The position numbers and the translations under genes were made by a program. 64,000 nucleotides of DNA from Streptomyces nigrescens (GTDB lineage: Bacteria; Actinomycetota; Actinomycetes; Streptomycetales; Streptomycetaceae), in assembly GCA_024349765.1 (NCBI GenBank), contig AP026073.1:1302001-1366000 (forward strand), read 5' to 3'. Below are positions 15,132 to 58,401 of this stretch, one piece after another; the first letter of the stretch is position 1, and each line of letters starts with the position of its first letter. Below the pieces are notes generated by a model. That model was not told where the DNA came from and did no database searches. It saw nothing but the letters and a program-made list of their open reading frames with translations.

Positions 15132-15947
15132 CTACCCCTGGTCGAACGCGACCGGGACGTCGAAGGCGGCGCGGCGGGTGGCCCGGCGCAGGGCCTTGAG
15201 GACGGCCCCGCCCAGCGTGACGGTGAGGACCACGGTGACCAGGGCACGGGGGAGGTCCCAGCCGAGGGAGGTGGCGAGGCAGTAGGCCACGTAGCGGGCG
15301 AGGTTCTGGTCCAGCGGATCGCCCGGTACGAAGGAGACGCCCGAGGCCATGCCCGCGATGTACGGCCAGCCCTGGAGGTTCATGACCAGGCCGTACAGCA
15401 CCGCGGAGACGGCACCGTAGGCGGCCAGCAGCGCCAACTCGCGGCGTCCGCGCAGCCGGTCGGCCCCCGGCAGCAGACCGGCGCCCATCGACACCCAGCC
15501 CATCGTCAGCATCTGGAACGGCATCCAGGGGCCGACGCCGCCGGTCAGCAGCGCCGAGGCGAACATCGCCACGGAACCCAGCACGAAGCCGAAGCCGGGC
15601 CCGAGCACCCGGCCCGCCAGCACCATCAGGAAGAACATCGGCTCGACCCCGGCCGTCCCCGCGCCCAGCGGACGCAGCGCGGCCCCGGCCGCGGCCAGCA
15701 CACCGAGCATGGCGATCGCCTTCGCGTCCAGGCCGACGTCGGCGATCGTCGCCACCACCACGGCGAGCAGCATCGGCAGCAGCGCCGCGAACAGCCACGG
15801 CGCGTCCTTGGAATGGGCGAGCCCGGACGCGGAGTCGGCCAGCAGCGGCCAGCCGAACGCCATCACGCCGATCGCCGACACCAGGGCCAGCGCGGCGACG
15901 GAGCGGGGCCCGAGCCGCACCGCACGGGCCTGCCGGCCGGCCGTCAT
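15132..15947 (-). CDS. ECF transporter S component (putative cobalamin/corrinoid specificity)
   Basis: A 271-residue integral membrane protein with about six helices (SVAALALVSAIGVMAFGWPL, then LLPMLLAVVVATIADVGLD and FMVLA-like segments). PWMPFQMLTMGWVSMGAGLL and YGLVMNLQGWPYIAG are typical of the substrate-binding subunit of energy-coupling-factor importers. It is the last gene of a five-gene operon, overlapping the ATPase gene by 4 bases (ATGA). The operon is headed by a cobalamin riboswitch, so vitamin B12 or a corrinoid precursor is the likely substrate; cobalt is the alternative. No biochemical motif fixes the substrate. Confidence 0.8.
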   Translation of the reverse strand: MTAGRQARAVRLGPRSVAALALVSAIGVMAFGWPLLADSASGLAHSKDAPWLFAALLPMLLAVVVATIADVGLDAKAIAMLGVLAAAGAALRPLGAGTAGVEPMFFLMVLAGRVLGPGFGFVLGSVAMFASALLTGGVGPWMPFQMLTMGWVSMGAGLLPGADRLRGRRELALLAAYGAVSAVLYGLVMNLQGWPYIAGMASGVSFVPGDPLDQNLARYVAYCLATSLGWDLPRALVTVVLTVTLGGAVLKALRRATRRAAFDVPVAFDQG

Positions 15948-17566
15948 ACGGCGCCCTCCAGGGCACCGGCCACCTGCGGAACGGTCAGCCAGGGCAGCGG
16001 TGCCAGCACCTTCGCGACCTGCGGGGCGAACGACGGCGACGAGACCACCACCTCGTCGGTGGGCCCGTCGGCGACCACCTCACCGTCCGCGAGGATCACC
16101 ACCCGGTGCGCCAACTCGGCGGCGAGCTCCACGTCATGGGTCGCCAGGACGATGGCGTGCCCCTCGGCCGCGAGCCCGCGCAGCACCTCGACCAGGCGGG
16201 CCTTGGCGGCGTAGTCCAGGCCGCGGGTGGGCTCGTCGAGCAGGAGCAGCGGAGGCCGGGCGGTCAGCACGACCGCGAGGGCGAGCGCGAGCCGCTGGCC
16301 CTCCGACAGGTCCCGGGGATGAACGGAATCCGGCACACCGGGCAGCAACCGCGCGACCAGCGCCCGGCAGCTGCCCGCGGGGGCGGCCGCGTCCCGGTCG
16401 GCCGCGGCGCACTCGGCGGCGACGGTGTCCGCGTAGAGGAGGTCACGGGGCTCCTGCGGCACCAGGCCGACCTGCCGCAACAGCTCCCGCGGACCGGTCC
16501 GGTGCGGAACGACGCCGCCCACCCGCACCGCGCCGGACGACGGCTGGTGCATCCCGACGAGGGTGGACAGGAGCGTGGACTTCCCCGCGCCGTTCCGCCC
16601 CATCAGGGCGACGGTCTCGCCGCGCCGGACGGACAGGTCCACCCGGTGCAGCGCCTCGATCCGCCCCCGGCGTACACCGAGCCCGGTGACCTCCGCGACC
16701 GCCGCGGCCTCCGCGGTCCGCGCGGCGTCCACCGGCCGTGGTGGTGTGACGGTTTCCAGTCGCGCCCGCAGTGGAGCGGCCTTGCGGCGGGCGTCCCGTA
16801 CGGACAGCGGGAGCGGGGACCAGCCGGCGAGCTTGCCCAGGCCCACCACCGGGGGATGGACCGGGGAGACCGCCATGACGTCGGACGGTGCGCCCATGAC
16901 CGGCGGCGCACCGGGCGCGGGGAGCAGGATGACCTGGTCGGCGTACTGGATCACGCGCTCCAGCCGGTGTTCGGCCAGCAGGACCGTGGTCCCCAGATCG
17001 TGCACCAGACGCTGGAGGACGGAGAGCACCTCTTCGGCCGCGGCCGGGTCCAGGGCCGACGTCGGCTCGTCCAGGACCAGGACCTTGGGGTGGGTGGTGA
17101 GCACCGAACCGATCGCCACCCGTTGCCGCTGACCGCCCGAGAGGGTGGTCAGGGCCCGGTCCCGCAGCTCGGCCAGGCCCAGCAGGTCGAGGGTCTCCTC
17201 GACCCGGCGGCGCATCACGTCCGGAGCGAGCCCCAGCGACTCCATGCCGTAGGCGAGCTCGTCCTCGACGGTGTCGGTGACGAAGTGCGCCAGCGGGTCC
17301 TGGCCCACCGTCCCGACCACATCGGCCAGTTCGCGCGGCTTGTGGGTGCGGGTGTCACGGCCGTCGACGGTGACCCGGCCGCGCAGCGTCCCCCCGGTGA
17401 AATGCGGCACCAGCCCGCAGACGGCGTTCAGCACCGTCGACTTGCCGACGCCGGAGGGACCGACCAGGAGGCACAGCTCACCCTCCGGGACGGTCAGGTC
17501 CACGCCCTGGACGGCAGGTGCGGCGGCGTCCCCGTAGGTGACGGAGACCTGCTCGAACCGGATCAC
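15944..17566 (-). CDS. ECF transporter double ATPase (EcfA-EcfA' fusion)
   Basis: A 540-residue protein with two complete ABC ATPase domains in one chain, powering the ECF importer from the cytoplasmic face. Domain 1 has Walker A LLVGPSGVGKSTVLNAV, signature TLSGGQRQRVAIGSV and Walker B KVLVLDEPTSALDP. Domain 2 has Walker [17 protein letters not shown], signature DLSEGQRLALALAVV and Walker B PLLLLDEPTRGLDY. Most ECF systems use two separate ATPases; the fused form is common in actinobacteria. The start is a GTG (VIRFEQVSVTYGD) overlapping the stop of the T-component gene as GTGA. The downstream S-component gene overlaps by ATGA, so the whole set is translationally coupled. Confidence 0.9.
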   Translation of the reverse strand: MIRFEQVSVTYGDAAAPAVQGVDLTVPEGELCLLVGPSGVGKSTVLNAVCGLVPHFTGGTLRGRVTVDGRDTRTHKPRELADVVGTVGQDPLAHFVTDTVEDELAYGMESLGLAPDVMRRRVEETLDLLGLAELRDRALTTLSGGQRQRVAIGSVLTTHPKVLVLDEPTSALDPAAAEEVLSVLQRLVHDLGTTVLLAEHRLERVIQYADQVILLPAPGAPPVMGAPSDVMAVSPVHPPVVGLGKLAGWSPLPLSVRDARRKAAPLRARLETVTPPRPVDAARTAEAAAVAEVTGLGVRRGRIEALHRVDLSVRRGETVALMGRNGAGKSTLLSTLVGMHQPSSGAVRVGGVVPHRTGPRELLRQVGLVPQEPRDLLYADTVAAECAAADRDAAAPAGSCRALVARLLPGVPDSVHPRDLSEGQRLALALAVVLTARPPLLLLDEPTRGLDYAAKARLVEVLRGLAAEGHAIVLATHDVELAAELAHRVVILADGEVVADGPTDEVVVSSPSFAPQVAKVLAPLPWLTVPQVAGALEGAV

Positions 17567-18729
17567 TGGCTGGGCTCCTTCTGGGCGGTCTTGGCGGTTC
17601 TGGTGGCCCTGGTGGTGGCCGGGTCCGCGGCCGGGGCGGTGGCGCCGGCAGGGGCCGGGGCCGGGGCCACGACGGCCGGGAGGAGGCCGACGAGGAGGGA
17701 AGCGGCCGGCCAGAGCGGCAGGACCGGGGCGGTGAGCGGGAAGGCGGGCGGGTGGAGGGCGGCGGGGGCGTAGCCGCCGGCCCAGATCGTCAGGGCCGCG
17801 ACGGCGATGCCGGAACCCGCCACCAAGCAGGCGCGCGGGCCCCACCGTTCGGGGCGGTAACGGGTGCGCACGGAACGGCGGCCGCCCAGCCACAGCCCGG
17901 CCAGCGCCGCCGCCAGCCCGGCCAGGAGGAGGGGCAGCCCGTAGCCGGCCCCGGTGTCACCGAGCAGGCCGTAGGTGCCCGCGCAGACGCCCAGCAGCCC
18001 GCCGAGGGTGAGGGCGGAGGTGGTGTGCCGTACGGCACGCGGGACACGGGCGCTGCGGCCGTAACCCCGGGCGTCCATGGCCGCGGCCAGCGCCACCGAA
18101 CGCTCCAACGCGCCCTCCAGCACCGGCAGTCCGACCTGGAGCAGCGCCTTGAAGCCCCGGTCGGGCCGGCCGCGCAGCCGGCGGGCGGCCCGGAGCCGCT
18201 GGACGTCGGCGACCAGGTTCGGGGCGAAGGTCATCGCCACGACCACGGCGACGCCCGCCTCGTACAGCGCACCGGGCAGCGACTTCAGCAACCGGGACGG
18301 GTTGGCCAGCGCGTTCGCGGCGCCGACGCAGATCAGCAGGGCGGCCAGCTTCAGCCCGTCGTAGAGGGCGAAGAGCATGCCCTCCGCGGTGACCCGGCCA
18401 CCGATCCGGACGCCCTCGGCCCAGTCCGGAAGCGGCACTTCGGGAAGCGTGACGAGCGTGTGGCTACCCGGGATCGGCGAGCCGAGGACGAACGCGAAGA
18501 CCAGCCGGATGCCGATCACCAGCAGACCCAGCTTCACGAACGCGCCGTACGAGCGGGCCCACGGCGCGTCCGTACGCCGCACCGCGACGACGTACCCGGC
18601 CACTCCCACCAGCAGCCCGAGCAGCAGCGGATTGGTGGTCCGGGAGGCCGCGGTGGCCAGTCCGAGCGCCCACAGCCACCATGCGCCGGCGTGCAGCGCG
18701 GTGGTACGGGTCGCCTGCGGGGCGCTCAT
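17563..18729 (-). CDS. ECF transporter T component (EcfT/CbiQ-like permease)
   Basis: A 388-residue membrane protein linking ATPases and S component. Helices include GAWWLWALGLATAASRTTNP, FVKLGLLVIGIRLVFAFVLG and PLLLAGLAAALAGLWLGG. The two cytoplasmic coupling helices with Ala-Arg-Gly motifs are visible as LRAARRLRGRPDRG and AAAMDARGYGRSARV, the latter being the classic A-R-G box of EcfT. The long C-terminal Pro/Ala/Thr-rich tail (after about residue 350) is unusual. The start MSAPQATRTTALHAG overlaps the stop of the upstream SCO2322-type gene (ATGA). Role and coupling are well supported; substrate specificity comes from the S component. Confidence 0.88.
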   Translation of the reverse strand: MSAPQATRTTALHAGAWWLWALGLATAASRTTNPLLLGLLVGVAGYVVAVRRTDAPWARSYGAFVKLGLLVIGIRLVFAFVLGSPIPGSHTLVTLPEVPLPDWAEGVRIGGRVTAEGMLFALYDGLKLAALLICVGAANALANPSRLLKSLPGALYEAGVAVVVAMTFAPNLVADVQRLRAARRLRGRPDRGFKALLQVGLPVLEGALERSVALAAAMDARGYGRSARVPRAVRHTTSALTLGGLLGVCAGTYGLLGDTGAGYGLPLLLAGLAAALAGLWLGGRRSVRTRYRPERWGPRACLVAGSGIAVAALTIWAGGYAPAALHPPAFPLTAPVLPLWPAASLLVGLLPAVVAPAPAPAGATAPAADPATTRATRTAKTAQKEPSQ

Positions 18730-19412
18730 CCGCGCCGGCGGCGCGCCTGCCACCCGGCCGCCGCACCGAGGACGAGGACGGCCGCACCGCCGCCGAGCAG
18801 ACCGGCGGACGGCCCGCCGTCGGCGTCGGCGCCGTCGGCCCGGTCGGCGTCGTGAGCCCGGTCGGCCTCCGTGGCCTTGCCGGCACCGGAACCGGCGCCT
18901 CCACCCGCGTCCTTCACCTGGTCCGCGCACCCCGACTTCGGGTAGCCGGCGATCCCGCACAGCAGCGCGTCGGAGTCGTAGCGCAGCGGCCGGGCGACCG
19001 CCGCCAGGGCCTCACCGGCCGAGGCGTCCGCGGGCACCTGGGCACAGGCGGTCCGCGCCTTCGGCGGCCGCTCACCGCCCGGGGCGTCCGCGGCGGTGCC
19101 GAAGTCGATGACGATGCCGATCCGCTTGCGGCCGTCCTTGGCGGGCGTCGTACCGCAGACGGCGTCGAAGTCCGCGGCGGTACGCGGCTTTCCGGCCGCG
19201 GCGGAGTCCGCGCTGACGGTGAAGCGGAAGCCCTCGACCGCGCCGTCGGCCGGCCGCAGGGTGGCCGGCCCCTCCGTGGCGTACGCCCAGGAGCCGTCCT
19301 TGCCGCCGCCGTTCCAGAACGACCAGTAGCGGTACTCCTGCGCCTGGGCGGGGGCGGCCGCCAGACCGGTGAGGGTGCCGGCCAGCAGCACCGCCTGGAG
19401 TGCCCGGCGCAT
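18726..19412 (-). CDS. SCO2322-type secreted, C-terminally anchored protein (possible B12-binding partner)
   Basis: A 228-residue exported protein: signal peptide RRALQAVLLAGTLTGLAAAP with an AQA-Q cleavage site, a compact domain beginning EYRYWSFWNGGGKDGSWAYA, and a C-terminal helix GLLGGGAAVLVLGAAAGW followed by QARRRRG that anchors it in the membrane. The W-rich opening and the DGAVEGFRFTVSAD segment recall DUF4430, the fold family of the C-terminal half of transcobalamin; this is my inference and not a certain family match. It is translationally coupled to the barrel protein upstream (TGATG) and to the T component downstream (ATGA), under the cobalamin riboswitch. It may form the second half of a surface B12-capture device. 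Confidence 0.8.
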   Translation of the reverse strand: MRRALQAVLLAGTLTGLAAAPAQAQEYRYWSFWNGGGKDGSWAYATEGPATLRPADGAVEGFRFTVSADSAAAGKPRTAADFDAVCGTTPAKDGRKRIGIVIDFGTAADAPGGERPPKARTACAQVPADASAGEALAAVARPLRYDSDALLCGIAGYPKSGCADQVKDAGGGAGSGAGKATEADRAHDADRADGADADGGPSAGLLGGGAAVLVLGAAAGWQARRRRG

Positions 19413-20758
19413 CAGAGGCCGTTCTTCCCGCGGTTCCTGCGGCCGCTCAGCAGGAAGCCGATGCCGGCACCGATGGCCAGGCCGACGGCGACGACCCACA
19501 CGACGCCCATGCCCCCGCCCTTGCCGTCGTCGCTCTTCGCGTCCTTCCCGGACGTCTCGGCCCCGGCGGACACCGCGGCCGGCTTCGGGCCGGTGGCGTT
19601 CAGGGCGGACACCAGGTCGGTGCCGCCGAACGCGCGCGGGTCGGTGCCGGTGGCGTGCGCGGCGAGCACCAACTGTGCGTACGCGGCCGGGCCGTTCTGC
19701 CGGGCCCAGCCGGCGGCGTTCTTCTCCAGCCACGCGAGCGGCCGCTGCGCGGCGGAGCGGTGGCCACCGGCCGCCAGCGCCACCACGGCATCGGCGGTGT
19801 TGCCGACGTCCGGCTGCTCCTTCGCACCCGGCATCGTCGACATCAGATGCTGTCCGTTCCTGCCGAGCTGATCGACGAGGTAGGCGGCGCCGCCGTCCGC
19901 GGCCCGCGCCCGGCCGTCCGCCCCCGCCTGCTTGCCCTTGCCGGCGCCGTTCTCCATGCCGTTCTTGCAGGTCAGCGGCTTGACGGGAGTATCGGCGGCG
20001 CCGTTTGCGGGGGCGACGACGAAGCCCTTGCCGAGCGCGCCGGTCGCGGCGGCCGCGGTGGCGTCGGCGTTCGGCGCCGCGTCCTTGAGCTGGAAGGTGA
20101 ACGCACCGCGCCCCTCCTCCTTGGCGTCGCAGCCCAGCCGGAAGGTGAGCAGCCCGTCGTAAGGGGTCTTGCCGCCCTTCTTCGACGTGACCGACTCCGG
20201 CTTGTGACCGGCCGCCGCCAGCGCGCCGATGACCACCGAGGTGGAGTTGGCGTCGCTGGGCGAACCGGGCATCGAGCTCCAGCCACCGTCGTCGTTCTGC
20301 ACCGACTTCAGCCAGTCCACGGCCTTCGTCACGGTCTTGCCGTGCCCACCGAGCGCGGCCAGCGCCTGCACCGCGGCGGCCGTCTGGTTGGTGTCCCGCA
20401 TCGTCTTGGCGTCACACGCCTTGCCCGGGTCGGCCCGGAACGCGGTGTACGAGCCGTCCGCGCACTGCTGCCCGACCAGCCAGTCCACCGCCGGGGCCGC
20501 GGGCCGCACGCCCACCGTGTGCTGCGCCAGCAGCGCGAGCGACTGCCGCCAGACGCCGTCGTACTGCGGGTCCTTGGTGCCGTACAGCCCGGCGGGCAGC
20601 TTCTGCGGGGACGGGGAAGGGCCGGCGGCGGACGCGGCGGGGGCAGCGGCCGCGCCCAGGACCACCGCGGCCGCCAGCGCCGTGGCGGCGCGGCGCGCCA
20701 GGAAGGCGACGGGGTGCGTCGAAGGGGCCTGGTGAGCCATGGAAGCCATGGGAGCCAT
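19412..20758 (-). CDS. Secreted prenyltransferase/squalene-oxidase-repeat (alpha/alpha barrel) protein in a B12-regulated operon
   Basis: A 448-residue exported protein. It has a signal peptide (ALAAAVVLGAAAAPAASAAG), then alpha/alpha-barrel repeats of the prenyltransferase/squalene-oxidase type (VDWLVGQQCADGSYTAFR, VDWLKSVQNDDGGWSSMP, VVALAAGGHRSAAQRPLAWL). The C-terminal helix MGVVWVVAVGLAIGAGIGFL is followed by a basic tail, so it is anchored outside the membrane. The same fold forms the larger half of intrinsic factor and transcobalamin. It is the first gene after a cobalamin riboswitch and is coupled to ECF transporter genes, so cobalamin or corrinoid capture is a reasonable proposal. 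There is no catalytic DxDD motif of cyclases. Three in-frame ATGs (20758, 20749, 20740) are possible; the first has GAGAGG upstream. Confidence 0.85.
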   Translation of the reverse strand: MAPMASMAHQAPSTHPVAFLARRAATALAAAVVLGAAAAPAASAAGPSPSPQKLPAGLYGTKDPQYDGVWRQSLALLAQHTVGVRPAAPAVDWLVGQQCADGSYTAFRADPGKACDAKTMRDTNQTAAAVQALAALGGHGKTVTKAVDWLKSVQNDDGGWSSMPGSPSDANSTSVVIGALAAAGHKPESVTSKKGGKTPYDGLLTFRLGCDAKEEGRGAFTFQLKDAAPNADATAAAATGALGKGFVVAPANGAADTPVKPLTCKNGMENGAGKGKQAGADGRARAADGGAAYLVDQLGRNGQHLMSTMPGAKEQPDVGNTADAVVALAAGGHRSAAQRPLAWLEKNAAGWARQNGPAAYAQLVLAAHATGTDPRAFGGTDLVSALNATGPKPAAVSAGAETSGKDAKSDDGKGGGMGVVWVVAVGLAIGAGIGFLLSGRRNRGKNGL

Positions 20759-20934
20759 CGGGTCGGTGCCTCTCGGGTCGGGTCGCGGCGGTGCACGCAG
20801 CCGCGCTCGGCCCACCACCCGCGCTCCGATCCTGCGATCGGGCGCGGTGGCACCGGGCTCGGCTCCGTATACCTCGACGGTGCCGCGCACCGGCCGTCCG
20901 CACGTGGCGGTACCGGTGGCGCGAGCCTTGGCCG

Positions 20935-21118
20935 TGCCCCATCGGGTGCTCCGACTCGTCCGGCCGGATCGCCGCACGAGGAGCGACCGGCCGTCCTCAC
21001 GGATGGGGGTGCCCCCGGGCTCGAGCGAAGCCGAGAGCTTGGGGGAGGGTCAGCGCCGGATTTACACCGGCTTCCCCCGATCGGGTACGGATGACGTTGT
21101 CCCGCACACCTTAACCGG
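20935..21118 (-). promoter_or_regulatory. Cobalamin riboswitch
   Basis: On the minus strand the core reads GGGGGAAGCCGGTGTAAAT followed by CCGGCGCTGACCC (complement of about 21046-21077), the strongly conserved central part of the B12 aptamer. A B12-box-like AGTCGGAGCACC follows at the complement of about 20945-20956. It lies 180 bases upstream of the first gene of the ECF operon. Such switches lower expression when adenosyl- or methylcobalamin is bound. Outer boundaries are approximate. Confidence 0.82.
21003..21051. repeat. Palindromic Streptomyces-type repeat inside the riboswitch
   Basis: ATGGGGGTGCCCCCGGGC followed by TCGAGCGAAGCCGAGAGC and TTGGGGGAGGG forms nested inverted repeats. I recognise this as a sequence found in many intergenic regions of Streptomyces genomes (from memory, not searched). 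It lies between the conserved core and the B12 box, in the arm that varies in length among these riboswitches. Confidence 0.6.
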
Positions 21119-35014: not shown

Positions 35015-35334
35015 GGCTTCCTCCTGGTGGTGCGGTCAAAGGCTCATCGTGCCGTACGGGCCGGGGGTGGCCGTGCGGGGGTTCGCATTTCGTGCGGCTT
35101 TCCGGCCGGCCGGGCGGCGCGGGGGAGTCGCGCCGGCGGATTCCCGGCCGTTCCCGCCGGTTTATCGCCGGACGTTTCCCGGATGTCCGGAAACGGGAAA
35201 GGCGCGGGCCGGAAACCGGCGGGCGGGCAAATGGCATTCCGTACCGGAATTCACCGGACCGTTTCCCGTCCGCCGCCGGACCGTTCCCCGCGGGGCACTT
35301 GCCGCCGTCCGCCGGGCGGAACATTCCGGCTCAT

Positions 35335-35349
35335 CTGACCTTCCGTCAG
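35335..35349. promoter_or_regulatory. Recurrent dyad CTGACCTTCCGTCAG beside a KstR box
   Basis: Arms CTGAC/GTCAG with spacer CTTCC. It ends 2 bases before the KstR box in the promoter of the fused acyl-CoA dehydrogenase gene. Confidence 0.6.
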
Positions 35350-35351
35350 AA

Positions 35352-35365
35352 TGGAACGTGTTCTA
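35352..35365. promoter_or_regulatory. KstR box over the fadE34-like promoter
   Basis: TGGAACGTGTTCTA matches TnnAACnnGTTnnA fully. It overlaps a -10-like TAGTCT (35364-35369) that ends 7 bases before the ATG, so repressor binding would block a leaderless promoter. Confidence 0.88.
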
Positions 35366-35376
35366 GTCTGCCCCGC

Positions 35377-37572
35377 ATGGGCATCGGAATCACACCGGAC
35401 CACCGCGACCTGGCCGAGGCAGTGGGCGGCTGGGCCCGCCGGGCCGTGCCACCCGAAGAGGTCCGCACCCTCCTCGACACCACACCCGCCCGCACCGGAC
35501 GCCCCGCCCACTGGGACGGCCTCGCCGCACAGGGCCTGCTCGGCCTCCACCTCCCCGAGGCCGACGGCGGGGGCGGCGGCGACCTGCTCGACCTCGCCGT
35601 GGTCCTCGAAGAACTGGGCCGCGCCGCACTCCCCGGCCCCTACCTGCCCACCGTCCTCGCCGCCGCGCTGCTCCACCGAGGAGGCGCGCACCGGCACCTC
35701 GTACGGGCCCTCGCCACCGGCGAGCTGATCGGCGCGGTGGCGCTCGGCCCCGGCACGCTCACCGCCACCGGCACACCCGACGGCTACCTCCTCGACGGCA
35801 CCGCGCCCCCGGTCCTCGCCGGGGCCGACGCCGACCTCCTCGTGCTCGCCGCACGGACCGCGACCGGGACCGTCCACCTCGCCGTCGACGCCGCGGCGCT
35901 GACCGTACGCGTCCAGGAGAGCGCCGACCCGACCCGCCCGGTCGCCGAAGTCGGCGCGGACGGCGTGCCGGTGCCCGCGGACCGGCTGGTGGCCGTCGAC
36001 GACGCGCTCGTCCGCGACCTGGCCGGGGTGCTGTACGCCGCCGAGAGCTGCGGGACGGCGGCCTGGGCCCTCGCCACCGCCACCGAACACGCCCGGGTCC
36101 GCGAGCAGTTCGGCCGCCCCATCGGCCAGTTCCAGGCCGTCAAACACCTCTGCGCCGACATGCTCGTCCGCTGCGAACAGGCCCGCGCCCTGGTCTGGGA
36201 CGCGGCCCGCGCCCACCGCGAGCCGTCCGAGGTCCGCGGCCTGGTCGCCGCCCTCGCCACCGCCACCGCCCTCGACGCCGCCTTCAGCTGCGCCAAGGAC
36301 TGCATCCAGATCCTCGGCGGCATCGGCTTCACCTGGGAACACGACGCCCATCTGCACCTGCGCCGGGCGACCGCGGCCCGCCAGCTGCTCGGCGCCGGCG
36401 ACACCCACCGGCTGCGCGCCGCCGCCCTCGCCGCCGGCGGCGCCCGGCGCCCGCTGAGCCTCGAACTCCCTGCCGGGGCCGAGCAGTTCCGCACCGCGGC
36501 CCGCGAGGTCATCGACCGGGTGCGCGGCCTGGACCCCGCCGCCGTACGCCGCGAACTGGCCCCCACCGGATACGCCGCACCGCATCTCCCGCCGCCCTAC
36601 GGCCTGGGCGCCGGACCGGTCCAGCAGCTGGCCGTCCAGCAGGAACTGGCCGCCGCCCGGGTCACCGTCAGCGACCTGGGCATCGCCACCTGGGTCGTGC
36701 CCTCCCTGCTCGCCCACGGAACCCCCGAACAGCAGCAGCGCTACCTGATGCCGTCGCTGCGCGGGGAGATGCTGTGGTGCCAGCTGTTCTCCGAACCGGA
36801 GGCCGGATCGGACCTGGCCGGCCTGCGCACCCGCGCCGAGCGGGTGGACGGCCCCGACGGCCCCGGCTGGCGGATCAACGGGCAGAAGGTGTGGACCTCG
36901 GCCGCCCAGTGGGCCGACCACGGCATCCTGCTCGCCCGCACCGACCCGGACGCGCCCAAGCATCAGGGCCTGACCTTCTTCGTCGTCGACATGAAGACAC
37001 CCGGGATCGACGTCCGGCCGCTGAAGGAGATCACCGGCGAGGCGCTCTTCAACGAGGTCTACTTCGACGACGTGCTGCTGCCGGCCGACGCGGTGGTCGG
37101 CGCGACCGGCAACGGCTGGAAGGTGGCCCGCACCACCCTGGACAACGAACGCGTCCACATGGCCGACCAGTTGACCTTCGACACCGGACTGGCCGCGCTC
37201 CTCGTCCGCACCGCCGGCCTCGACGGCTCCGTACGGGCCCGGGTGGGCGCCCTGGCCGCCGAGGCGCACGCCCTGGCCTGCCTCACGCTGCGCACCACGC
37301 TCCAGCAGGTCTCCGGCCTCGAACCGGGCGCCGGCGCCAGCATCCGCAAGCTGGTGCAGACCCCGCACCAGCAGAAGGTCGCCGAACTGGCGCTGGAACT
37401 GCTCGGCCCGGACGGCGCGGTGCGCGAGGGCGCCGGTGAACGCGCCCTGCACGGCTTCCTGATGTCGCGCTGTCTGACCATCGCCGGCGGCACCACCCAG
37501 GTGCAGCGGAACGTGGTCGCCGAGCGGCTGCTCGGCCTGCCCCGCGACCCCGAGCCCCGCCCCCTCATCTGA
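35377..37572 (+). CDS. Fused double acyl-CoA dehydrogenase, FadE34/ChsE3-like
   Basis: A 731-residue protein with two acyl-CoA dehydrogenase domains in one chain. The first half (about 1-360) contains LHLPEADGGGGGDLLDLAVV, REQFGRPIGQFQAVKHLCAD and CIQILGGIGFTWEHDAHLHL. It has no SEPEAGSD segment. The second half (about 365-731) keeps LWCQLFSEPEAGSDLAGLR, GWRINGQKVWTSAAQWADHG and the C-terminal IAGGTTQVQRNVVAERLLG. FadE34/ChsE3 of M. tuberculosis has the same double layout, is KstR-controlled, and dehydrogenates the five-carbon side chain (C24) sterol-CoA. The ATG is 7 bases after a -10-like element, suggesting a leaderless mRNA. An Ltp1-like thiolase gene follows 77 bases later. Confidence 0.9.
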   Translation: MGIGITPDHRDLAEAVGGWARRAVPPEEVRTLLDTTPARTGRPAHWDGLAAQGLLGLHLPEADGGGGGDLLDLAVVLEELGRAALPGPYLPTVLAAALLHRGGAHRHLVRALATGELIGAVALGPGTLTATGTPDGYLLDGTAPPVLAGADADLLVLAARTATGTVHLAVDAAALTVRVQESADPTRPVAEVGADGVPVPADRLVAVDDALVRDLAGVLYAAESCGTAAWALATATEHARVREQFGRPIGQFQAVKHLCADMLVRCEQARALVWDAARAHREPSEVRGLVAALATATALDAAFSCAKDCIQILGGIGFTWEHDAHLHLRRATAARQLLGAGDTHRLRAAALAAGGARRPLSLELPAGAEQFRTAAREVIDRVRGLDPAAVRRELAPTGYAAPHLPPPYGLGAGPVQQLAVQQELAAARVTVSDLGIATWVVPSLLAHGTPEQQQRYLMPSLRGEMLWCQLFSEPEAGSDLAGLRTRAERVDGPDGPGWRINGQKVWTSAAQWADHGILLARTDPDAPKHQGLTFFVVDMKTPGIDVRPLKEITGEALFNEVYFDDVLLPADAVVGATGNGWKVARTTLDNERVHMADQLTFDTGLAALLVRTAGLDGSVRARVGALAAEAHALACLTLRTTLQQVSGLEPGAGASIRKLVQTPHQQKVAELALELLGPDGAVREGAGERALHGFLMSRCLTIAGGTTQVQRNVVAERLLGLPRDPEPRPLI

Positions 37573-57990: not shown

Positions 57991-58401
57991 GGCGGACGAG
58001 CCGGCCGGACGGCCGCGTGGGGATCGGCAACGACCCTCCCGAGGAACGTCCGGGCTCCACAGGGCAGGGTGGTGGGTAACACCCACCCGGGGTGACCCGC
58101 GGGACAGTGCCACAGAAAGCAAACCGCCGGAGGCTTCGGCCTCCGGTAAGGGTGAAACGGTGGTGTAAGAGACCACCAGCCTCCGAGGTGACTCGGAGGG
58201 CTAGGTAAACCCCACCCGGAGCAAGGTCAAGAGGGGGCATCGGCGATGCCCCTGCGCGGACGACCGAGGGCTGCCCGCCCGAGTCCGCGGGTAGACCGCA
58301 CGAGGCTGTCGGCAACGGCAGCCCTAGATGGATGGCCGTCTCCCCCCGGCCCGCAAGGACCGGGGGCGACAGAACCCGGCGTACAGGCCGACTCGTCCGC
58401 C
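57991..58401 (+). ncRNA. rnpB: RNase P RNA, bacterial type A (rnpB)
   Basis: The catalytic RNA of RNase P, which matures tRNA 5' ends. The closing helix P1 is exact: GGCGGACGAG (57991-58000) pairs with CTCGTCCGCC (58392-58401). Conserved regions are intact: GAGGAACGTCCGGGCTCC (from 58041), GCCACAGAAAGCAAACCGCC (from 58109), GGTAAGGGTGAAACGG, AGGTAAACCCCACCCGGAGC, TAGATGGATGGCCG (near 58325) and CGACAGAACCCGGCGTACAG (near 58369). Length about 411 bases fits actinobacteria. The boundaries are set by P1, so true ends may differ by a few bases. Confidence 0.95.

What the first reader, a model, noticed from the sequence alone, without database searches (positions are those of the whole stretch)
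15132..21118. B12-riboswitch operon with a possible split transcobalamin-like receptor
Seen: a cobalamin riboswitch leads five coupled genes: an exported, membrane-anchored alpha/alpha-barrel protein, an exported, anchored W-rich protein, then EcfT, a fused EcfA-EcfA' and an S component. Known: human intrinsic factor and transcobalamin bind cobalamin between an alpha/alpha barrel and a DUF4430-like beta domain. Inference: the two surface proteins may be the separate halves of the same fold, capturing cobalamin or corrinoid on the cell surface and passing it to the ECF importer. I do not know of a described bacterial system with this layout.
Basis: partly seen in the sequence, partly recalled or inferred. 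Interest (0 to 1): 0.75.

Follow-up and report, generated by a model that had tools for sequence, protein, structure and literature searches.

The report
Split bacterial vitamin B12 receptor operon
Streptomyces and many related bacteria carry a gene set that looks like a vitamin B12 importer whose surface receptor is built from the same two parts as the human B12 carriers, here cut into two separate proteins with rearranged chains.

Summary
On the minus strand, five overlapping genes encode an anchored alpha/alpha-toroid protein (SCO2321 family), an anchored W-rich protein (SCO2322 family), EcfT, EcfA-EcfA' and an S component. The leader is a cobalamin-aptamer relative, but a 44-nt palindromic repeat replaces its conserved GCAA, and Rfam scores it only 16.1 bits. 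Response to B12 in this strain is uncertain.

Comparison supports the split receptor. Of 92 related ECF loci with enough flank, 87 have an SCO2322-like gene upstream and 79 an SCO2321-like gene in the locus. A cobalamin riboswitch precedes a surface gene in 18 of 20 named relatives (12 above Rfam's threshold). Seven ORFs fuse the two parts. Foldseek's top 13 PDB matches for one fusion model are transcobalamin and intrinsic factor.

Beyond the finding, both window proteins are circular permutants of the usual actinobacterial modules; tandem and C-N-C toroids survive in relatives.

Burroughs et al. 2007 predicted bacterial toroid plus beta-grasp B12 scavengers with CbiO/CbiQ, listing low-GC Gram-positives, planctomycetes and euryarchaea. 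This is a new variant of that unproven kind. No binding is shown, domain orientation in the fusion model differs, the model of the window's SCO2322 is poor, and the ligand is inferred.

The parts
20938..21088 (-). Cobalamin-riboswitch leader (aptamer relative). 20994-21087 matches the leader model; the 3' box to about 20938 was placed by eye.
   Evidence: R1 model 45.6 bits, E 2.3e-8; RF00174 16.1 bits, below gathering; sequence
21003..21046 (-). Palindromic repeat inside the aptamer, in place of the conserved GCAA
   Evidence: Comparison with 35 other leaders of the genus (by eye); other copies of the element in the genome
19415..20758 (-). SCO2321-family protein, 448 aa: exported, C-terminally anchored alpha/alpha toroid, circular permutant of the usual actinobacterial form
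   Evidence: NF053823 592 bits, cut-off 300; PF13243 7.6e-8; permutation; anchor segment
18729..19412 (-). SCO2322-family protein, 228 aa: exported, GPS-CTERM-anchored, DUF4430-like (probably beta-grasp) domain in circularly permuted order
   Evidence: NF040672 222 bits, cut-off 85; NF040681 30.9 bits, cut-off 28; permutation; link of relatives to DUF4430
17566..18729 (-). EcfT transmembrane protein, 388 aa
   Evidence: PF02361 27.6 bits; relatives in 104 loci
15947..17566 (-). Fused EcfA-EcfA' ATPase, about 540 aa, GTG start
   Evidence: Two ABC_tran stretches; TIGR04520/04521 two stretches each (below their equivalog cut-offs); start placed
15135..15947 (-). ECF S component, 271 aa
   Evidence: PF12822 35.1 bits; family alignment A1; tree

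Best explanation
The operon encodes a corrinoid (most likely cobalamin) uptake system. SCO2321 (an alpha/alpha toroid) and SCO2322 (a DUF4430-like, transcobalamin-type beta domain) sit on the outer face of the membrane by C-terminal anchors. They close on one corrinoid between them, as the two domains of transcobalamin and intrinsic factor do, and hand it to the S component, which the EcfT-EcfAA' motor drives through the membrane. A cobalamin riboswitch represses the operon when the vitamin is plentiful in most relatives; in this strain an inserted repeat may have weakened or abolished that control. Shown by computation: operon, family identities, conserved co-occurrence, fusions, riboswitch association, permutation of both domains. 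Inferred: ligand, joint binding, hand-over, regulation.
For: Co-occurrence: the S-component scan (the best 80 of at least 577 relatives) gives SCO2322-like upstream in 60 of 63 and SCO2321-like in 53 of 63 loci with at least 4.5 kb upstream; with the regions, which had been chosen by surface-gene hits, 87 and 79 of 92. Fusion in one ORF, three alpha-beta and four beta-alpha, in 7 of 107 ORFs that carry both beta halves; in L103 the fusion is the only surface gene found before EcfT. Foldseek with the L103 fusion model (pLDDT 83.1, pTM 0.69): ranks 1-13 are all transcobalamin or intrinsic factor, E 1.1e-9 to 1.3e-7, 469 to 492 alignment columns. Profile comparison of ordinary SCO2322-like domains to DUF4430: P 3.7e-4, prob 36.5, in register over 67 columns; S-component control prob 0.4. 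Cobalamin riboswitch 5' of a surface gene in 18 of 20 named loci, 12 above the gathering score and 6 below (26.0-31.1 bits), and above gathering in 16 of 40 other loci. Window leader 45.6 bits.
Confidence: 0.68

Rival explanations
1. The transporter carries another B12-linked substrate (cobalt, cobinamide, dimethylbenzimidazole or another corrinoid precursor), and the surface proteins bind that.
For: EcfT matches the CbiQ cobalt family; the S component resembles no solved S component by sequence; a B12 riboswitch also fits cobalt or precursor uptake (established knowledge); CobS is present.
Against: A two-part transcobalamin-like receptor would be unusual for a metal ion; the fused relative's best Foldseek matches are the cobalamin carriers.
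Confidence: 0.19
2. SCO2321 is an enzyme (terpene-cyclase-like or glycan-active toroid) that only shares the operon; SCO2322 is an unrelated surface protein.
For: Sequence and fold of the toroid are nearest to squalene-hopene cyclases and other toroid enzymes.
Against: No DxDD at the cyclase motif position: 0 of the 12, out of 35 aligned relatives, in which the position could be parsed, and DTNQ in the window (motif recalled; DxDD does occur elsewhere in 2 of the 35 and in L086 and L087). C-terminal anchors; fused to the beta domain in seven ORFs in both orders.
Confidence: 0.08
3. The permutation of SCO2321 and SCO2322 is an alignment artefact of internal repeats.
For: Toroids contain repeated hairpins, so shifted registers are possible.
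Against: Two profile blocks in swapped order cover most of the profile in 9 of 9 toroid proteins tested, and a duplicated window sequence aligns 31-376 of 396 in one 127-bit stretch across the junction. The beta domain, in which I know of no such repeats, is swapped in 9 of 9.
Confidence: 0.08
4. In this strain the leader no longer works as a riboswitch and the operon is constitutive or otherwise controlled.
For: GCAA of the aptamer core is replaced by a 44-nt repeat; the same spot is altered in several other leaders of the genus (by eye); Rfam score 16.1.
Against: The 5' core and the box near 20950 look kept (by eye); tolerance to an insert there was not tested.
Confidence: 0.5

Closest known systems
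Bacterial transcobalamin-like SLBB (DUF4430) plus alpha/alpha-toroid proteins with CbiO/CbiQ (Burroughs et al. 2007, PMC1796856; abstract, passages and section 6 seen)
   Same: Secreted or anchored toroid and beta-grasp domains, fused in either order, in predicted operons with CbiO-like ATPase and CbiQ-like membrane protein; predicted B12 scavenging
   Different: The clade is reported there for low-GC Gram-positives, planctomycetes and, less often, euryarchaea; the text seen does not name Actinobacteria for it. Here the beta domain is beyond Pfam's DUF4430 model, the parts are usually separate genes, and in Streptomyces both are circularly permuted.
Human transcobalamin and intrinsic factor
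   Same: Alpha/alpha toroid plus beta domain; top Foldseek matches of a fused relative
   Different: One soluble secreted chain; here two anchored proteins beside a membrane importer; domain orientation in the model not the same
ECF-CbrT of Lactobacillus delbrueckii (PMC5997447, passages seen)
   Same: ECF-type importer for cobalamin
   Different: The passages describe the S component itself as the binding protein; a surface receptor is not mentioned in them. No sequence match of our S component to any solved S component
NCBIfam SCO2321 family (NF053823) and SCO2322 family (NF040672)
   Same: The window proteins are members above the cut-offs
   Different: The listing gives no function for either

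Membership tests
SCO2321 family (NF053823) | Score above curated cut-off 300 | tested here: met
   592 bits
SCO2322 family (NF040672) | Score above curated cut-off 85 | tested here: met
   222 bits
ECF transporter | EcfT, two EcfA domains and an S component in one operon | tested here: met
   PF02361, two ABC_tran stretches and PF12822 above cut-offs
Transcobalamin-like SLBB plus toroid system | Alpha/alpha toroid partner | tested here: met
Transcobalamin-like SLBB plus toroid system | Beta-grasp with a beta-hairpin inserted after the helix | tested here: inconclusive
   Fused relative L103: two strands, helix, then four strands, one fewer than the clade's pattern; the window model has pLDDT 60.5
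Transcobalamin-like SLBB plus toroid system | Match to Pfam DUF4430 (PF14478) | tested here: not met
   No hit in the window protein, in eight relatives with a beta domain or in the own genome; a profile comparison links relatives at P 3.7e-4, prob 36.5
Transcobalamin-like SLBB plus toroid system | Binds cobalamin | not testable with these tools
   Needs a binding assay
Cobalamin riboswitch (RF00174) | Score above gathering 31.5 | tested here: not met
   16.1 bits; the homologous leader in L086 passes at 40.9 bits
Cobalamin riboswitch (RF00174) | Homology to a structured leader of the same gene in relatives | tested here: met
   R1 45.6 bits, E 2.3e-8; 7 of 21 pairs with changes on both sides among 20 leaders
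Class II terpene cyclase | DxDD motif | tested here: not met
   Absent at the motif position in 12 of 12 parsed of 35; window DTNQ (motif recalled)

The most novel reading that the evidence does not exclude
Streptomyces use a two-piece cobalamin receptor in which both the toroid and the beta half are circular permutants of the ancestral actinobacterial modules. The toroid was permuted first, through tandem forms still seen in relatives, and the beta half later, in the lineage of Streptomyces, so that the cobalamin site is rebuilt from two chains with new ends and feeds an ECF importer.
Probability: 0.53. Interest if true: 0.75.

Novelty: new variant of a known kind. Interest (0 to 1): 0.62.

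Why it matters
It gives a testable function to two protein families of unknown role that nearly every genome of the genus carries (59 of 61 sampled have SCO2321 over its cut-off). It would give ECF importers a dedicated extracellular receptor, and it extends the likely bacterial kin of human B12 carriers within another phylum. The series of fused, tandem, split and permuted forms offers a natural experiment on how circular permutation arises in a ligand-binding pair. It also warns that a riboswitch assigned by family can be broken by a repeat in an individual strain.

Tried and rejected
Pfam, single-sequence PDB and profile-PDB searches for the beta domain gave no transcobalamin hit. As a calibration, the true DUF4430 profile reaches transcobalamin-1 only at E 0.047. 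VIA-align on the fused model lists toroid enzymes; transcobalamin is not among the 50 rows shown, which excludes nothing.

Apparent fusions L133 and L146 were dropped because their SCO2322 match lies in the tail only. L151 is left as possible because both beta halves were not detected in that ORF.

Considered and rejected: SCO2321 as an active cyclase; permutation as a repeat artefact. A Foldseek search with the window SCO2322 model was asked for once, met a busy machine and was not repeated, because the model is too poor to interpret. An attempt to align both beta halves of many relatives to the window protein misplaced one half; the mix used for A7 was chosen after comparing three mixes.

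My first reading of the fusion model as showing the clade's hairpin was weakened, because one strand is missing from the pattern; for that I lowered the main confidence from 0.70 to 0.68, raised two rivals by 0.01 each, and lowered the novel case from 0.55 to 0.53.

Literature: searching SCO2321 to SCO2325 listed one paper, on an unrelated skin-delivery peptide (listing only). Other searches were (listings). PMC4350170 and PMC5997447 were seen as passages. Only openly licensed papers are searchable, and Rodionov et al. 2009 is not held (known only through passages of PMC5997447). A claim of absence in print is therefore weak.

Full report
What is there. The operon lies on the minus strand. Order and coordinates: SCO2321 family 20758-19415 (448 aa), SCO2322 family 19412-18729 (228 aa), EcfT 18729-17566, EcfA-EcfA' 17566-15947, S component 15947-15135. 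Each stop overlaps the next start by one to four bases, so the five are probably translated together (inference). Both surface proteins have a C-terminal hydrophobic segment followed by basic residues; SCO2322 carries the GPS-CTERM sorting tail.

The leader. Rfam finds RF00174 only at 16.1 bits. Leaders of the same gene were held for 36 genomes of the genus: 35 hold the aptamer core and 26 the GCA(A/G)C segment by pattern (L234 also, by eye). In the window a palindromic repeat of 44 nt stands in its place, and the leaders L006, L216, L225, L231 and L236 show comparable inserts at the same spot (by eye). The element has eight copies with up to three mismatches in the own genome, the window's included, and none for the reversed control. 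A model from 20 intact leaders, with 7 of 21 pairs showing changes on both sides, hits the window at 45.6 bits, E 2.3e-8; the next window match has 20.8 bits. So the leader is a relative of a cobalamin riboswitch, probably damaged.

How widespread. In a phylum sample of 246 genomes, SCO2322-like matches at E 0.001 or better occur in 39 (9 over the family cut-off); SCO2321 matches in 84 (8 over the cut-off), a number that includes other toroids. In the genus sample 59 of 61 have SCO2321 over its cut-off. From the 40 regions (chosen for surface-gene hits) and the 80 loci of an S-component scan (the best 80 of at least 577), 104 held EcfT, and 92 of these had at least 4.5 kb upstream: 87 have an SCO2322-like gene upstream, 70 an SCO2321-like gene upstream and 79 one anywhere in the locus. 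The S-component scan did not use the surface genes; there the figures are 60, 46 and 53 of 63.

Link to B12. Riboswitches of RF00174 (or RF01482 in L101) above the gathering score stand within about 600 bases 5' of a surface gene in 16 of 40 loci searched with Rfam (compared by eye; of the seven Streptomyces-type loci only L086). In L097 a DUF4430 match lies in between. In a second set of 20 named loci, genome searches put a riboswitch at most 204 bases 5' of the matched part of a surface gene in 18 of 20, 12 above the gathering score and 6 at 26.0 to 31.1 bits; L112 and L113 were the misses. Contigs were paired by coordinates, not by name, and L104 is the least sure.

Link to transcobalamin. 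In most relatives the SCO2322 domain reads VVVDF..C..GL.AL..AGF..FVCRI.G..YWSYW..GG.W.YS..GA..G..EGW, which resembles DUF4430 in order and motifs (P 3.7e-4 but prob only 36.5; control). Toroid and beta domain are fused in one ORF in L077, L103, L105 (toroid first) and L111, L112, L116, L136 (beta first). The AlphaFold model of the L103 fusion, made with 82 sequences, has pLDDT 83.1 and pTM 0.69; its beta part has two strands, a helix and four strands, compatible with a beta-grasp but one strand short of the pattern that Burroughs et al. describe (five core strands plus a hairpin after the helix). Foldseek ranks transcobalamin and intrinsic factor 1 to 13 (E 1.1e-9 to 1.3e-7, 469-492 columns), ahead of squalene-hopene cyclases at 2.8e-7. 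I infer that the beta part adds to the match, since the toroid alone favours cyclases; but TM-scores of about 0.4 and rmsd of 21-24 mean that the two domains are not oriented alike, or that the toroids are out of register, and complement or A2ML1 chains give equally long alignments at E 1e-4. The toroid has no DxDD at the cyclase motif position where it could be parsed.

Circular permutation. Among toroid ORFs with E 1e-5 or better in loci L063-L182, 91 of 116 read C-N relative to the Streptomyces order, 10 read C-N-C-N (two toroids in one chain), 8 read N-C (seven Streptomyces-type and L066), and 7 show other patterns. A profile from 35 ordinary-order toroids places its positions 160-378 at window residues 68-273 and 31-141 at 279-388; the nine proteins tested (window, seven of the genus, L066) all behave so, and a duplicated window sequence aligns 31-376 in one stretch. 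For the beta domain, all 107 ORFs in which both halves were detected read B-A (the swapped proteins fell below that call's cut-off for half B). With half profiles from those, nine of nine tested proteins (window, seven of the genus, L063) read A-B, the window at 47.5 and 15.4 bits against at most 7.8 and 7.2 in 2000 shuffles. In a tree of 114 S components the nine permuted-beta rows come from one branch (support 93/94), next to two groups with ordinary beta order (joining support only 89/59), one of which has N-C (L066) or C-N-C (L072, L078) toroids. This suggests that the toroid changed first and the beta half later. The branch to L063 is long, so its place is unsure.

Mechanism. By analogy with the sandwich of B12 between the two domains of transcobalamin (PMC1796856, passages), the two anchored proteins would clamp the corrinoid and pass it to the S component. 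The fusions and the tight genetic link argue for joint action; the hand-over is inference. The genome has CobS, so salvage rather than strict need is the likely benefit.

What is known. Burroughs et al. 2007 (PMC1796856; abstract, passages and section 6 seen) predicted that bacterial beta-grasp plus toroid proteins in operons with CbiO and CbiQ scavenge B12, and listed low-GC Gram-positives, planctomycetes and, less often, euryarchaea for that clade. In eight genomes of our phylum sample, true DUF4430 lies some 4-5 kb from a toroid match, so both versions exist in the phylum. This finding is thus a divergent, split and permuted variant of a predicted system. The AlphaFold model of the window's SCO2322 itself is too weak to judge (pLDDT 60.5), though its more confident half shows the expected strand, strand, helix, strand order.

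Noticed in passing
window 21003-21046 (-); also L006, L216, L225, L231, L236: Palindromic repeats sit at the same spot inside the cobalamin aptamer in several leaders of the genus, replacing GCAA (by eye); whether one old insertion or repeated hits is open.
   Followed up: partly
L072, L078, L066 and ten C-N-C-N ORFs such as L108:2848-5439: Tandem and C-N-C toroids look like surviving intermediates of circular permutation of the SCO2321 domain.
   Followed up: partly
   Followed up: no
G101:C50, G112:C27, G068:C44, G030:C36, G090:C34, G055:C279, G044:C147, G079:C5: True DUF4430 matches lie about 4-5 kb from a toroid match on the same contig, suggesting a parallel operon type.
   Followed up: no
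L063, L065, L070, L115, L117, L118, L128, L135, L163, L176, L177: These ECF loci have an SCO2322-like gene but no SCO2321-like gene nearby; the beta half may act alone or with a partner elsewhere, as the separate toroid loci of G134 (L064) and G102 (L069) suggest.
   Followed up: no
L075 (four matches), L107 2592-2943, L123, L133: Several loci hold two or more cobalamin riboswitches, some of them before further surface genes.
   Followed up: no
window 35307-35405 (-): Weak match (20.8 bits, E 0.015) to the leader model R1; meaning unknown.
   Followed up: no
window 57997-58399 (+): RNase P RNA, class A; ordinary.
   Followed up: no
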